A DNA stretch of 64,000 bases from Synechococcus sp. PROS-7-1 (GTDB taxonomy: Bacteria; Cyanobacteriota; Cyanobacteriia; PCC-6307; Cyanobiaceae). A program made the translations under genes and the position numbers. The stretch covers positions 516,572 through 580,571 of the forward strand of contig NZ_CP047945.1 of assembly GCF_014279795.1 (NCBI RefSeq). The letters are read 5' to 3'. The notes below the pieces were generated by a model. The model searched no databases and was not told where the DNA came from. It worked only from the letters and a program-made list of their open reading frames with translations. Shown piece after piece: positions 4,998-9,254 of this stretch (within the stretch, counting starts at the first letter, position 1; every line of letters begins with the position of its first letter).

Positions 4998-5372
4998 TCA
5001 ACCGAGATATTCCTTGCGGAGTGTCTGGATGCGAGTGACGAGGGCTGAGCGCTTCTCACTGGTGGTGAGATTTTTCCAACTCCACTGGCCGACCACAACC
5101 ACACCAAGCAGCTCCAGCAGGCCTGGAACAACGGGAAGCAGATTGATGGTGTCGAGAATGCCCTTGATCAGGATCTGGGCAACGATCACCGCGGCGAAAA
5201 TTCCTACAACCTTGCCGATGCGACCGGCCTGGCCCCAATCGACTTTGTCGAGGGTTTCATTCACTTTTCCGAGAATGTCTTTGTACCGCTCAGCAAAATC
5301 GACGCTCTCACCAGCTGGGGCAGCATTCGTGACGTCGGTGTCATTCACCTGGGTGGTGCTTTCGTCGCTCAT
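4998..5372 (-). CDS. CAAD domain (CURT1-like) thylakoid membrane protein
   Basis: A 124-residue protein with a polar N-terminal half (residues 1-48, with an amphipathic stretch FAERYKDILGKVNETLDKV) and two hydrophobic segments, about residues 52-72 (VVGIFAAVIVAQILIKGI) and 78-95 (LPVVPGLLELLGVVVVGQ). It ends in WSWKNLTTSEKRSAL and a short amphipathic helix. This layout and the YxW/WxWKNL-type motif match the cyanobacterial CAAD domain, related to plant CURT1, which curves thylakoid membranes and is also found fused to some aminoacyl-tRNA synthetases. Here it is free-standing. It diverges from the JAMM protease gene, with start codons only 11 bases apart. Confidence 0.85.
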   Translation of the reverse strand: MSDESTTQVNDTDVTNAAPAGESVDFAERYKDILGKVNETLDKVDWGQAGRIGKVVGIFAAVIVAQILIKGILDTINLLPVVPGLLELLGVVVVGQWSWKNLTTSEKRSALVTRIQTLRKEYLG

Positions 5373-5383
5373 GACGCCTTGGC

Positions 5384-6004
5384 ATGGATCTAATGCCCGC
5401 TGACCTTATCGACAAGCTTCCGCAAATGCCATGGCGACTGCGCTTCGATCGGGATTGCCTGATCGTTTTGCGGAAATCGCTTCATGCCGTGACGCCGGAG
5501 GAGGGATGTGCCCTGCTGCTGGGGAACTCCGGTCCTGAGGTGAGAGTGCGCGTGGTTTGGCCCTGCTGCAATGTCTGGCGTCCGGGCCTTCAGGGTCTCG
5601 AGGAGCACCCGGGCCGCGGCGGTGGCGGTCCTCCTTCACGCCAGACGCGGTTCGCTCTGGATCCACGCGAGCAGATCGCGGCGCAACGCTGGGGGCGCCA
5701 GCGAGGGCTCCATGTTGTCGGGAGTGCCCATTCCCATCCCGGTGGTGCGCCACGCCCCAGCGAGAACGACAGGCGTTGGGTGGCTGCCGATGGGGTGGTG
5801 GTGATCGATGCTGGTTCTGGTGGGCTGGCGGGATGGTGGATGGAGCGATCCACCCCAAGACATGGTTTCGATCTCGCAAGTCCTGCCAAGGTCTATTCCC
5901 TACCCCTCGTGGATCTTGATGGTGCATCGTTGAATAGCACTGGCCTGAGTGCAACCAATAGTCATTGCCGCACCACCGATGACGGATCAGCACCAGGTGT
6001 CTGA
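5384..6004 (+). CDS. JAMM/MPN+ metalloprotease (Mov34/PAD-1 family)
   Basis: A 206-residue Zn-dependent isopeptidase-like protein. The JAMM motif is complete: a Glu in TPEEGCALLLG (about residue 39), then HSHPGGAPRPSEND (about 117-130), giving H-x-H-x7-S-x2-D, the zinc ligands and catalytic serine. Bacterial relatives include Mec, which releases cysteine from the sulfur carrier CysO, and deubiquitinase-like enzymes acting on ThiS/MoaD-type carriers. The 3' end overlaps the start of the moeB-rhodanese gene by 26 bases, suggesting translational coupling and a shared pathway. Several ATGs (5384, 5393, 5426) are possible starts. No ThiS/MoaD-like carrier lies in the window. Confidence 0.87.
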   Translation: MDLMPADLIDKLPQMPWRLRFDRDCLIVLRKSLHAVTPEEGCALLLGNSGPEVRVRVVWPCCNVWRPGLQGLEEHPGRGGGGPPSRQTRFALDPREQIAAQRWGRQRGLHVVGSAHSHPGGAPRPSENDRRWVAADGVVVIDAGSGGLAGWWMERSTPRHGFDLASPAKVYSLPLVDLDGASLNSTGLSATNSHCRTTDDGSAPGV

Positions 6005-7142
6005 ACTCAGCTCACAAGAACGGGGGCGCTACGCCCGCCACCTCACGCTGCCGGAACTTGGGCTCGCCGGTCAGAGGCGTCTGAAAGCTGCCTCTGTGCT
6101 CTGTATTGGCGCTGGAGGCCTCGGTTCCCCGCTTCTCCTCTATTTGGCTGCTGCCGGGATCGGGCGACTCGGCATTGTTGACGATGACCGCGTCGATCTC
6201 AGCAATCTTCAGCGGCAGGTGATCCATGGCCAGGCTTCTGTCGGGGAGGCCAAAACCTCTTCAGCCCGGAAAAGGATTTTGGATCTCAATGAGCACTGTG
6301 TGGTGGAAGAGCATCTCTGCAGGCTGACGGCGGATAACGCTCTTCAGTTGATTGAGGGCTACGACCTTGTGGTGGATGGTTCGGATAATTTCCCGACTCG
6401 ATATCTGATCAGCGATGCCTGCGTCCTGCTCGGTAGACCGTTCATCTATGGATCCGTCCAGCGTTTTGAAGGCCAGGTCACGGTGTTCAACCAGGGGCCA
6501 CACTCTCCGGACTACCGGGACCTCGTGCCTCAGCCGCCACCACGGGACCTTGTGCCGTCTTGCGCCGATGGGGGTGTGATGGGTGTGATGCCCGGATTGA
6601 TCGGTCTCCTTCAGGCGACCGAAGTGATCAAGGTGATCACCGGTCTCGGTGACACCCTCGACGGGCGTTTGCTTCTGGTTGACAGCCTCAGCATGCGTTT
6701 CAGAGAGCTGCGCCTCGAGCGCCGGCCCAATCGGCCCCCGATTGAAAAACTGGTGAACTACGAGCAGTTCTGCAATTCTGGAGTTCCTGTCGAGGACGAG
6801 GAGTCCCAGGGAATGAACAGCATCTCAGTGCGTGAGCTCAAGGCGTTGCTCGATGAGAGAACCGATCTTGTGCTCCTGGATGTTCGGCAGCAGGCTGAGG
6901 CTGATGTGGCGGTGATTCAAGGCTCCCAGCTGATTCCTCTGGCCTCCATCGAATCGGGTGACGCGATCGAGCGGATCCGTTCGCTCGCGAATGATCGAAC
7001 TGTTTATGTGCATTGCAAGCTGGGTGGTCGATCAGCCAAGGCCGTCGATCTGTTGACGCGCTTCGGTATTCAGGCGGTGAATGTGACAGGAGGAATCGAC
7101 GCTTGGAGCCAGGAGGTGGATGCCTCGGTGCCCCGTTATTGA
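5979..7142 (+). CDS. moeB: MoeB/ThiF E1-like adenylyltransferase fused to rhodanese
   Basis: A 387-residue protein with two domains. Residues 1-250 form an E1-like adenylyltransferase: ATP loop CIGAGGLGSPLLLYLAAAGIG, VDLSNLQRQ and the conserved VVDGSDNFPTRYLISD. This half would adenylate the C-terminal glycine of a MoaD/ThiS-type sulfur carrier. The PSCADGGVMGVMPG segment lacks the CxxC pairs that bind zinc in E. coli MoeB. Residues 280-387 form a rhodanese domain with the persulfide loop VHCKLGGRSA (active Cys), which would pass sulfur to the carrier. The ATG at 5979 was chosen because homology starts at RYARHLTLPELG. It overlaps the JAMM protease gene upstream. Confidence 0.92.
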   Translation: MTDQHQVSELSSQERGRYARHLTLPELGLAGQRRLKAASVLCIGAGGLGSPLLLYLAAAGIGRLGIVDDDRVDLSNLQRQVIHGQASVGEAKTSSARKRILDLNEHCVVEEHLCRLTADNALQLIEGYDLVVDGSDNFPTRYLISDACVLLGRPFIYGSVQRFEGQVTVFNQGPHSPDYRDLVPQPPPRDLVPSCADGGVMGVMPGLIGLLQATEVIKVITGLGDTLDGRLLLVDSLSMRFRELRLERRPNRPPIEKLVNYEQFCNSGVPVEDEESQGMNSISVRELKALLDERTDLVLLDVRQQAEADVAVIQGSQLIPLASIESGDAIERIRSLANDRTVYVHCKLGGRSAKAVDLLTRFGIQAVNVTGGIDAWSQEVDASVPRY

Positions 7143-7145
7143 GCT

Positions 7146-8342
7146 TTAGTAGTCGACTCCGCGTTTGAGATCCACGCCTTGCTCTGCGTAATGCTTGTGG
7201 CAGACCATCTCGGAGTGAACACTGGCGAGGTCGAAATACGCCGGTGGATGTTTGCAACGGCCGGTGATGATCACCTCTGTTTCTGCAGGCTTGCGAAGCA
7301 AGGCCTGAACGATCGGCTCGACCGGTAGAAGCTCGAGATCAACGGTGGGATTGAGTTCATCGAGAATCACCGTTTTGTAAAGCCCGCTGGCGATCGCTGC
7401 ACGGGCGATTTCCCAGGCCCTCTCCGCTTCCACGTAATCGATCGGTTGCTGCTGACCGCGCCAGACGATGGCGTCGCGGCCTGAACGCAGGTGATCCACC
7501 AGATGGGGATAGCTCTCGCGCAATGCTGCGATGGCTGCGTCTTCGGTGTAGCCGCTGCCCCCCTTGAGCCATTGAAGAATGAGCACCCGGTGGCTCTTGT
7601 CCTGGCTGATGCCGCGACCGATGGCCTGCAGGGCTTTACCGAGGGCACTGGTGGATTTGCCCTTCCCTTCACCGGTGTAGATCTCAATCGCTCCCGGTGT
7701 GGTGAAGGGCACCACCGGCTGGTTGTCGTCTGAGGGCCGACGATGGGCACGCATCTCAGAATGCAGGTCGGCGATCTGGATCAGTGGTCTGGGAGCACCA
7801 CGGCCGGTCACGATGATTTCCATCCCCTCCGGGCGGGATGAGAGGGCTTGCACCACATCGTCGATCTCGAGCAGGCCGAGATCGAGAACGGGATTGAGTT
7901 CGTCGAGCACCACGACGGAATACAGGGCGCTGGCAATGGCGCCACGGGCAATGTCCCAGCCCCGTTGCGCCTCCTGCTGATCAAAACGGGTGGCTTCTTC
8001 GGCATTGAAGTAGTCGGCGCGACCCGTGCGCACCTGGTCGATCAGATGGGGAAAACCCTGTTGCAGCGCTTCGATGGCTGCGTCTTCGTCGTATGCCCGT
8101 CCTGGTCCTTTGAGAAATCGCAGGAGCAGAACGCGGGTGCGGCGCTGCTCGCAGATGCCCAGGCCGATCGTGCGCAGCACGACGCCAAGTGCCGCCTGGC
8201 TCTTGCCCTTGCCGTCGCCGTCATAAACGTGCAACTGACCAAGGCTGCGCTCCCTGCTGTCCGCTGCTGTGACGATGCCAATGCCCCGGTTGCTGCGCCG
8301 GCGCGCACCGTCAGAGGTCTCGGATGAGCGTGTTGCGTCCAT
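7146..8342 (-). CDS. Tandem cob(I)yrinic acid a,c-diamide adenosyltransferase (CobO/BtuR duplicated)
   Basis: A 398-residue protein made of two CobO/BtuR-type P-loop domains. Domain 1 (about 30-210) has YDGDGKGKSQAALGVVLR and VVVLDELNPVLDLGLL; domain 2 (about 215-398) has YTGEGKGKSTSALGKALQ and VILDELNPTVDLELL. Only domain 2 ends with the usual GVDY-type tail. A single domain of about 190 residues is the classical enzyme, which transfers adenosine to cobalt in the corrin ring during B12 coenzyme synthesis. Both Walker A motifs look intact, so both halves may bind ATP. It is divergent from larE and convergent with moeB, 3 bases apart. Confidence 0.85.
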   Translation of the reverse strand: MDATRSSETSDGARRRSNRGIGIVTAADSRERSLGQLHVYDGDGKGKSQAALGVVLRTIGLGICEQRRTRVLLLRFLKGPGRAYDEDAAIEALQQGFPHLIDQVRTGRADYFNAEEATRFDQQEAQRGWDIARGAIASALYSVVVLDELNPVLDLGLLEIDDVVQALSSRPEGMEIIVTGRGAPRPLIQIADLHSEMRAHRRPSDDNQPVVPFTTPGAIEIYTGEGKGKSTSALGKALQAIGRGISQDKSHRVLILQWLKGGSGYTEDAAIAALRESYPHLVDHLRSGRDAIVWRGQQQPIDYVEAERAWEIARAAIASGLYKTVILDELNPTVDLELLPVEPIVQALLRKPAETEVIITGRCKHPPAYFDLASVHSEMVCHKHYAEQGVDLKRGVDY

Positions 8343-8402: not shown

Positions 8403-9254
8403 GTGGCCGAAACGCGCTTCCGTCCACTGGAGTCACTGCCTCGGGGCGACGAGGATCGCCTTGAAGCTCTGCGCGGCCTGTTGCGATCAGCAGGAAGCGT
8501 TTGTGTGGCCTACTCAGGCGGAGTGGACAGCACCCTTGTGGCGGCTATTGCTTGTGAACAGTTGGGTGAGCATGCCTTCGCTGTGACCGGTGTGTCTCCA
8601 TCGCTTGCGCCCCATCTATTGGACGAGGCGCGGCTCCAAGCCCGGTGGCTTGCGATCCGTCACCTTGAGGTGGAAACCAGCGAATTGGATGATCCGAACT
8701 ACAGCTCGAATCCAATCGATCGCTGCTTCGCCTGCAAGCGGGAACTGCATCACCACCTCAAAGACATCGCCAGTGCCGCTGAAGGGGCGCTGGTTGTTGA
8801 CGGGGTGAATCTCGATGACCTCGGAGACCATCGGCCCGGCATTGAGGCGGCCCGTCAGGCCGGTGTGCGATCGCCACTGGCCGAGCTGCAGATCGACAAA
8901 GCCACCATCAGGAGACTCTCCAAAGCCCTCGGTTTTCCCTGGTGGGATAAACCGGCTCAACCCTGTCTCGCGTCGCGATTCCCTTACGGGGAGGTGATTA
9001 CGCACCAAAGACTGAAGCTGGTTGGAGCGGCGGAAGCCTTGTTGATAGCCAGGGGATTTCCGCGCGTCCGCGTCCGCTGTCAGGGGCTTGCGGCTCGCAT
9101 TGAAGTGCCTTCCACCAGCCTCGGAGACTTTCTCAATGAGCCGATGCGCAGTGAACTTGTTCAGGAGTTCTTCGCCCTGGGGTTCACCTCGGTCAGCGTT
9201 GATCTTGAGGGGCTGGTGAGTGGAAAACTCAATCGCATGTCGACCATGCGCTGA
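8403..9254 (+). CDS. larE: ATP-dependent sacrificial sulfur transferase LarE
   Basis: A 283-residue PP-loop enzyme. The pyrophosphatase loop VAYSGGVDSTLVAAIA lies near residues 37-52. The family motif DRCFACKREL follows, and PCLASRFPYGE (about 191) holds the cysteine that in Lactobacillus LarE gives up its sulfur to make the nickel-pincer nucleotide cofactor. LarE normally acts with LarB and LarC to mature lactate racemase-type enzymes; neither partner nor LarA is visible here. The start is a GTG at 8403. Many cyanobacteria carry LarE-like proteins with an unproven substrate, so sulfur transfer is well supported but the final product is not. Confidence 0.88.
   Translation: MAETRFRPLESLPRGDEDRLEALRGLLRSAGSVCVAYSGGVDSTLVAAIACEQLGEHAFAVTGVSPSLAPHLLDEARLQARWLAIRHLEVETSELDDPNYSSNPIDRCFACKRELHHHLKDIASAAEGALVVDGVNLDDLGDHRPGIEAARQAGVRSPLAELQIDKATIRRLSKALGFPWWDKPAQPCLASRFPYGEVITHQRLKLVGAAEALLIARGFPRVRVRCQGLAARIEVPSTSLGDFLNEPMRSELVQEFFALGFTSVSVDLEGLVSGKLNRMSTMR

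What the first reader, a model, noticed from the sequence alone, without database searches (positions are those of the whole stretch)
5384..7142. JAMM protease gene overlapping an E1-like/rhodanese gene: a possible sulfur-carrier or ubiquitin-like modification module
Seen: a complete JAMM motif (Glu, then H-x-H-x7-S-x2-D) in a gene overlapping by 26 bases an adenylyltransferase fused to rhodanese. Known: JAMM proteins cleave products from C-terminal Gly-Gly carriers (for example Mec on CysO-cysteine), E1-like proteins activate such carriers, rhodanese supplies sulfur. Inference: the pair activates and then processes a MoaD/ThiS-type carrier encoded elsewhere, perhaps for cysteine, thiolated tRNA or molybdopterin, or to modify proteins. 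The divergent CAAD gene starts 11 bases away.
Basis: partly seen in the sequence, partly recalled or inferred. Interest (0 to 1): 0.6.

Follow-up and report, generated by a model that had tools for sequence, protein, structure and literature searches.

The report
Protease that uncaps vitamin-B1 sulfur carrier
In ocean-dwelling picocyanobacteria this protease gene appears to trim a short tail off ThiS, the small sulfur-carrying protein needed to make vitamin B1, so that the enzyme encoded next to it can load sulfur onto it.

Summary
In detail: an intact JAMM gene (5384-6004) overlaps by 26 bases a ThiF-type E1 fused to rhodanese (5979-7142). The pair itself is known: Iyer 2006 lists it for cyanobacteria, carrier unresolved. 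In this genome I found one E1, one JAMM, no MoaE and one carrier, ThiS, beside thiE. This ThiS ends IVGGG-Ser: its Gly-Gly is capped, so it cannot be activated as encoded. I predict that the JAMM removes the cap so that the E1 can thiocarboxylate ThiS for thiamine. Of 199 cyanobacterial genomes surveyed, 190 were usable: all 103 with capped ThiS have the JAMM; all 34 without the JAMM have uncapped ThiS; 53 have JAMM and uncapped ThiS. In the window's family JAMM is missing in one small-genome genus (8 of 8 sampled) and in G133; all nine have uncapped ThiS and keep the E1. Caps run from one Ser to 24 unconserved residues, as expected of a discarded tail. Cap removal by a JAMM is known (QbsD/QbsE, PtmS1/PtmS2); for ThiS of thiamine synthesis I found no report. 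No test was fully corrected for phylogeny, and there is no biochemistry.

The parts
4998..5372 (-). CAAD-domain gene, divergent neighbour; not part of the mechanism, but marks the conserved locus
   Evidence: Pfam CAAD 69.1 bits; CAAD and E1 stay neighbours in all 9 JAMM-less family loci
5384..6004 (+). JAMM (Prok-JAB) metalloprotease gene; proposed ThiS cap protease
   Evidence: fold model closest to 2kks and PfJAMM1
5501..5503 (+). codon of catalytic Glu40
   Evidence: invariant in alignment A2
5729..5770 (+). H-x-H-x7-S-x2-D zinc motif (residues 116-129)
   Evidence: motif and Glu block intact in 87 of 87 JAMM proteins examined
5979..7142 (+). E1-like adenylyltransferase-rhodanese fusion; the only ThiF-family protein found in the genome
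6030..6731 (+). ThiF adenylyltransferase domain (residues 18-251)
   Evidence: PF00899 252 bits; PSC cysteine kept, both CxxC pairs absent
6828..7112 (+). rhodanese domain (residues 284-378) with active-site loop CKLGGR
   Evidence: PF00581 50 bits

Best explanation
The JAMM and the E1-rhodanese form a two-gene unit that prepares ThiS, the sulfur carrier of thiamine synthesis. ThiS is made with residues after its Gly-Gly (here a single Ser). Step 1 (inferred): the JAMM cuts after the last Gly and exposes the free carboxylate. Step 2 (inferred from established E1 chemistry): the E1 adenylates that Gly and the rhodanese cysteine delivers sulfur, giving ThiS thiocarboxylate. Step 3 (established pathway, not tested here): the thiocarboxylate feeds thiazole formation. 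Shown here: intact JAMM and E1 active-site motifs, ThiS as the only carrier detected in the genome, the cap, and the one-way rule that capped ThiS occurs only in genomes with the JAMM.
For: Own genome: one PF02597 hit at E<=1 (ThiS), one ThiF hit, one Prok-JAB hit, no MoaE. ThiS scores 66 bits against the TIGR01683 cut-off of 37.45, the model ends at residue 67 of 68, and the gene lies beside thiD2-thiE. Cap against JAMM: family 99 JAMM+ capped, 3 JAMM+ uncapped, 9 JAMM- uncapped, 0 JAMM- capped; all usable genomes 103 / 53 / 34 / 0. By genus: 0 of 31 capped genera and 17 of 53 uncapped genera contain a JAMM-less genome (Fisher 1.5e-4). The nine JAMM-less family genomes keep CAAD and E1 side by side with 209-322 bases, no N, between the matches (606 in the window) and no JAMM remnant, and the five of their E1s that were aligned keep the PSC/PTC and rhodanese cysteines. 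Caps are 1-24 residues and vary even within one genus (g65: 7 genomes, 7 different caps). Other carriers: MoaD 0 of 12 capped; CysO-like 7 of 42 capped, all 7 in JAMM+ genomes, including the JAMM-adjacent carriers of 4 of 4 g18 genomes. Published precedent: capped carriers need a protease, e.g. QbsD (PMC6006322, passages); DRJAMM frees a C-terminal Gly by cutting a MoaD-MoaE fusion (PMC8832034, passages).
Against: The correlation is one-way: 53 JAMM+ genomes have uncapped ThiS, so the JAMM has, or had, another job in most cyanobacteria. The 99 capped family genomes probably inherit one event, and JAMM absence inside the family amounts to about two events, so the large p-values overstate the case; at genus level inside the family the chance that both JAMM-less genera fall among the 4 uncapped of 31 is 6/465 = 0.013. 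Outside the family only 4 genomes are capped; that all four are JAMM+ is weak by itself. thiS is not in the JAMM operon. No biochemistry; another peptidase could remove a Ser. ThiG was not looked for.
Confidence: 0.74

Rival explanations
1. Deconjugase: ThiS (or another beta-grasp protein) is attached to proteins by the E1, and the JAMM removes it, like a desampylase or the Thermus JAMM acting on TtuB conjugates. The cap is incidental or removed by something else.
For: The fold model lies close to PfJAMM1, solved in complex with SAMP2 (Z 16.0). In Thermus a JAMM deletion changes TtuB conjugates (PMC3980101, passages). The desampylase model matches weakly (36.3 bits, cut-off 130).
Against: Does not explain why capped ThiS is confined to JAMM+ genomes (103 of 103) or why all 34 JAMM-less genomes are uncapped. 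Below the desampylase cut-off. No second carrier was found.
Confidence: 0.1
2. Mec-like enzyme: the JAMM releases cysteine (or another product) from a CysO-like carrier.
For: A CysO-like carrier adjoins the JAMM in g18 and lies within about 3 kb of it in g65. The g18 carrier's second-best solved match is 3dwg_C, which I recall as M. tuberculosis CysO. An E1-rhodanese of MoeZR type serves CysO in mycobacteria (PMC3227635, passages). May well be the JAMM's job in many of the 53 JAMM+ genomes with uncapped ThiS.
Against: No CysO-like carrier was found in this genome (1 hit at E<=1, ThiS), nor in 25 other picocyanobacterial genomes with full hit lists, 17 of which keep the JAMM.
Confidence: 0.06
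3. Shared inheritance only: picocyanobacteria happen to have both a ThiS tail and the JAMM; the tail is tolerated or trimmed by a housekeeping carboxypeptidase, and the JAMM does something unknown with the E1.
For: The capped family is one clade, and JAMM absence within it is only about two events.
Against: Both JAMM-less lineages inside the family are uncapped; four further capped genomes outside the family are all JAMM+; 17 uncapped genera contain JAMM-less genomes against 0 of 31 capped genera; capped CysO-like carriers also occur only with JAMM.
Confidence: 0.1

Closest known systems
QbsD/QbsE and PtmS1/PtmS2 (JAMM plus capped sulfur carrier)
   Same: A carrier with residues after Gly-Gly, a JAMM gene and an E1-rhodanese or MoeZ homologue; the cap must come off before thiocarboxylation (PMC6006322, passages).
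   Different: There the carrier serves siderophores or natural products and lies with the JAMM gene; here the carrier is the housekeeping ThiS, elsewhere in the genome.
Row 4b of Iyer et al. 2006: E1-rhodanese + JAB pair of cyanobacteria
   Same: Exactly this gene pair; the row names Prochlorococcus and Synechococcus (PMC1779556, passages).
   Different: [quoted passage not shown] the cap on ThiS is not mentioned in the passages I saw.
DRJAMM on the MoaD-MoaE fusion (Deinococcus)
   Same: JAMM exposes the C-terminal Gly of a cofactor sulfur carrier (PMC8832034, passages).
   Different: Substrate is a fused domain in molybdopterin synthesis, not a short cap in thiamine synthesis.
Mec / CysO / MoeZR (Mycobacterium)
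   Same: JAMM + beta-grasp carrier + E1-rhodanese; the E1 here has the DYRD (NYRD in relatives) form and lacks the second CxxC, the MoeZR signature given in PMC3227635 (passages).
   Different: Mec releases cysteine after sulfur transfer; no CysO-like carrier was found in this genome.
Thermus TtuC (one E1 for TtuB, MoaD and ThiS) and its JAMM
   Same: One E1 homologue serves thiamine among other pathways, and a JAMM is tied to the carriers (PMC3980101, passages).
   Different: The JAMM there is linked to protein conjugates and tRNA thiolation; no capped ThiS is mentioned in the passages seen.

Membership tests
JAMM / Prok-JAB metalloproteases | Sequence match above the curated cut-off | tested here: met
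   PF14464 69.7 bits against cut-off 25
JAMM / Prok-JAB metalloproteases | Glu + HxHx7SxxD active site | tested here: met
   87 of 87 examined proteins intact
JAMM / Prok-JAB metalloproteases | JAMM fold | tested here: met
   model with mean pLDDT 70.7, pTM 0.71; 2kks Z 17.4, rmsd 2.2 over 132; PfJAMM1 5lda Z 16.0, rmsd 2.2 over 129
JAMM / Prok-JAB metalloproteases | Zinc-dependent proteolysis | not testable with these tools
   needs protein
Capped-carrier cassette (QbsD/QbsE, PtmS1/PtmS2 type) | Carrier with residues after Gly-Gly in the same genome | tested here: met
   ThiS ends VGGGS
Capped-carrier cassette (QbsD/QbsE, PtmS1/PtmS2 type) | Carrier gene beside the JAMM gene | tested here: not met
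   thiS at G000:C1:1694537, JAMM domain at 522030; met in g18 for a capped CysO-like carrier
Capped-carrier cassette (QbsD/QbsE, PtmS1/PtmS2 type) | JAMM removes the cap | not testable with these tools
   inferred from the distribution
Haloarchaeal desampylase (NF041370) | Score above the equivalog cut-off | tested here: not met
   36.3 bits against 130
Mec/CysO cysteine pathway | CysO-like carrier in the genome | tested here: not met
   one PF02597 hit at E<=1, which is ThiS
Molybdopterin synthesis (MoeB role) | MoaD and MoaE in the genome | tested here: not met
   MoaE 0 hits, control family search rings in 11 of 14 named genomes; no carrier other than ThiS
Thiamine ThiS system | ThiS equivalog beside thiamine genes | tested here: met
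   TIGR01683 66 bits against 37.45; ThiD2-ThiE upstream
Thiamine ThiS system | Thiazole synthase ThiG | not tested
MoeZR-type E1-rhodanese | first CxxC replaced by NYRD, second CxxC lost (criterion as given in PMC3227635) | tested here: met
   DYRD in the window, no CxxC in the protein

The most novel reading that the evidence does not exclude
Capped ThiS is a pro-protein and the JAMM is a gate for vitamin-B1 synthesis in marine Synechococcus and much of the picocyanobacteria. The same JAMM-E1 pair also attaches and removes ThiS from proteins, so that one carrier runs a sulfur cycle and a ubiquitin-like cycle, with the cap keeping new ThiS out of both until it is cut.
Probability: 0.1. Interest if true: 0.8.

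Novelty: new variant of a known kind. Interest (0 to 1): 0.52.

Why it matters
It gives a concrete, easily tested substrate to a JAMM-E1 pair listed in cyanobacteria in 2006 without a known carrier, and it would put a JAMM into thiamine synthesis, from which Iyer et al. reported JAB proteins to be completely absent. Picocyanobacteria are major ocean primary producers (general knowledge). It also offers a plain account of gene loss: where ThiS has lost its cap and no CysO-like carrier is found (genus g2), the protease is gone as well.

Tried and rejected
Molybdopterin role in this genome: dropped, no MoaE or MoaD found. CysO/Mec role in this genome: dropped, no CysO-like carrier; kept as a likely role elsewhere. 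Membership in desampylases: below cut-off. Ubiquitin-like protein modification: no evidence found, not excluded. Apparent JAMM remnants in 7 of 9 JAMM-less loci were an artefact: only the query JAMM_G112 matched, over the antisense of CAAD, because that stop-to-stop ORF began there. My first regular expression for the Glu block was too strict and flagged 35 of 87 JAMMs; a corrected one found 87 of 87.

What the counts leave out: of 199 genomes (97 class + 111 family, 9 shared), two had no ThiS hit (G081, G095), one ThiS was cut by a contig end (G090, JAMM-less), and six g9 genomes had only low-scoring ThiS-like hits (all JAMM+, all ending Gly-Gly); these nine were dropped, leaving 190. In the class survey 'JAMM+' means a Prok-JAB hit with E<=2.2e-16 (68 of 97); weaker hits (E 5e-11 to 6e-4) were not counted as this JAMM, so G006 and G092, for instance, count as JAMM-less. 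That 49 of 111 family genomes lack a CysO-like carrier rests on the match length (261 nt) in a hit list that was cut; a full list exists for 27 genomes, 26 of them without one. The MoaD and CysO-like labels rest on small profiles of my own. Organism names of G handles are not given; calling g2 high-light Prochlorococcus and g18 Gloeobacter is my guess from genome size, gene order and Iyer's table. Names HcyS/HcyD were looked for in papers without a useful hit and are recalled. Searches behind 'no report found' of a JAMM acting on ThiS or of capped cyanobacterial ThiS; only open-licence PMC papers are searched, and paper reading showed passages only. The word ThiS is searched as 'this', so it selects little.

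Full report
What is there. The window lies at 516572-580571 of a single-contig 2.57-Mb genome; the nearest named relative among the loci found is Synechococcus WH7803 (JAMM 78% identical). The JAMM gene (5384-6004) and the E1-rhodanese gene (ATG 5979 to 7142) overlap by 26 bases, and a divergent CAAD gene starts 11 bases from the JAMM. JAMM: Prok-JAB 69.7 bits; Glu40, His116, His118, Ser126 and Asp129 invariant among 13 proteins; 87 of 87 JAMM proteins from held loci keep the Glu block and HxHx7SxxD. The fold model (mean pLDDT 70.7, pTM 0.71) lies closest to 2kks (Z 17.4, rmsd 2.2, 132 aligned) and PfJAMM1 with SAMP2 (5lda, Z 16.0, rmsd 2.2, 129 aligned).

Adjacency. In 111 family genomes at least 95% complete, the JAMM family is found in 102 and the E1 family in 111. 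In all 102 the JAMM lies directly upstream of an E1 on the same strand, 74-301 bases between domain matches. In one of them (G064) that E1 copy carries two in-frame stops and an intact E1 lies on another contig, with the JAMM motif intact and ThiS capped.

Which carrier. The own genome gives one PF02597 hit at E<=1, one ThiF hit, one Prok-JAB hit and no MoaE (the control search rings in 11 of 14 named genomes). The carrier is ThiS by its equivalog model (66 bits, cut-off 37.45) and lies directly downstream of a ThiD2-ThiE gene. It ends IVTIVGGGS: the model stops at residue 67, Ser68 lies beyond it. A ThiS must end in Gly to be adenylated (established chemistry), so this one needs trimming.

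The test. I predicted that genomes without the JAMM would have ThiS ending in Gly. The first JAMM-less genomes read, genus g2, did, and the prediction was then tested on 199 genomes (97 from the class, 111 from the family, 9 shared). ThiS was read in 197 and is usable in 190. Family: JAMM+ capped 99, JAMM+ uncapped 3 (G104, G109, G112), JAMM- uncapped 9 (eight of g2 and G133), JAMM- capped 0 (Fisher 4e-11). All usable genomes: 103 / 53 / 34 / 0. By genus, 0 of 31 capped and 17 of 53 uncapped genera contain a JAMM-less genome (Fisher 1.5e-4). These p-values ignore relatedness. The most cautious form inside the family: JAMM-less genomes occur in 2 of 31 genera, and both fall among the 4 uncapped genera (6/465 = 0.013 by chance).

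Order of events. G133 (JAMM-) and G112 (JAMM+) belong to one genus and both are uncapped, which fits loss of the cap first and the protease later. In a rough ThiS tree (about 70 residues, modest support) G104, G109 and G112+G133 fall apart from each other, and g2 falls next to genomes with SYS and SLY caps, so uncapped ThiS seems to have arisen several times from capped ancestors. All nine JAMM-less family loci keep CAAD and E1 as neighbours with no JAMM remnant and only 209-322 bases, no N, between the matches, against 606 bases in the window; CobO is also present in 8 of the 9 fetched stretches (not in G133's). The five JAMM-less E1s aligned keep the PSC/PTC cysteine and the rhodanese cysteine.

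Nature of the cap. In the family 75 of 99 caps are a single Ser; others are A, C, T, F, SYS, SLY, DSP, FLES, SYSELN and, in genus g65, seven different tails of 3-24 residues. Lack of conservation fits a discarded tail and a JAMM with loose taste on the far side of the cut. Outside the family only four genomes are capped (G017, G067, G073, G093), all JAMM+; relatives in two of the same genera (G044, G084) are uncapped and JAMM+.

Other carriers. MoaD: 0 of 12 capped. CysO-like: 7 of 42 capped, all seven in JAMM+ genomes; the 8 from JAMM-less genomes are uncapped. In all four genomes of g18 (perhaps Gloeobacter) a CysO-like carrier with a one-residue cap (L, F, F, D) lies beside the JAMM; in G013, whose gene order I listed, the order is JAMM, carrier, E1. 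This suggests an old cassette of JAMM + capped carrier + E1, whose carrier gene was later lost from the pair while the JAMM was kept for ThiS in picocyanobacteria. That history is inference. In g65 (G100) threonine synthase and an uncapped CysO-like gene follow the pair.

Against. Fifty-three JAMM+ genomes have uncapped ThiS, so cap removal from ThiS cannot be the JAMM's only job across cyanobacteria; where CysO-like carriers are present, a Mec-like role is a fair guess. The family is one clade. thiS is unlinked to the JAMM. No enzyme was assayed. ThiG was not searched for.

What is known. Iyer et al. [quoted passage not shown] Capped carriers needing a protease such as QbsD are described in PMC6006322 (passages). 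DRJAMM cuts a MoaD-MoaE fusion (PMC8832034, passages). One E1 serving ThiS among others is known from Thermus (PMC3980101, passages). Mec, CysO and MoeZR are described in PMC3227635 (passages). In nine searches I found no report of a JAMM acting on ThiS or of capped ThiS in cyanobacteria; the library holds open-licence papers only.

Verdict. The pair is a known kind; the substrate proposed here is a new variant: ThiS of thiamine synthesis as a capped pro-carrier matured by the JAMM. Confidence 0.74, interest 0.52.

Noticed in passing
window 5979-7142 and loci L004, L117, L106, L370, L187, L189: The picocyanobacterial E1s examined lack the two CxxC pairs and carry DYRD/NYRD (MoeZR form), whereas the g18 E1s keep both CxxC pairs.
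   Followed up: partly
window 8403-9254: LarE-type sacrificial sulfur transferase gene (TIGR00268, 281.8 bits) two genes beyond the E1; it stays near E1 and CobO in the 8 fetched JAMM-less stretches of genus g2. A second sulfur-transfer gene beside the first may or may not be coincidence.
   Followed up: no
L110 (G064:C20) and L111 (G064:C9): The E1 copy beside the JAMM has two in-frame stops while an intact E1 lies elsewhere, near CobO; JAMM motif intact and ThiS capped.
   Followed up: partly
L366 (G144): Two CAAD genes side by side next to the JAMM-E1 pair.
   Followed up: no
L106 (G100), also seen near JAMM in other g65 genomes: Threonine synthase followed by an uncapped CysO-like carrier next to the JAMM-E1 pair; a sulfur-carrier link to threonine synthase is unexplained.
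   Followed up: partly
window 7146-8342: CobO-like adenosyltransferase with two domain copies in one protein (398 aa, two stretches).
   Followed up: no
JAMM alignment A2, residues 58-65 of the window protein: A VWPCCNVW block between the catalytic Glu and the zinc motif is invariant in 13 of 13 picocyanobacterial JAMMs; not part of the JAMM motif and of unknown role, perhaps carrier recognition.
   Followed up: no
G112:C1:52196-52888, G185:C21:23695-24387, G103, G191, G187, G140, G181, G123: Eight family genomes hold an extra ThiF-family protein of another type; in G103, G191, G187, G140 and G181 a second JAB hit lies close to it, perhaps separate E1-JAB systems.
   Followed up: no
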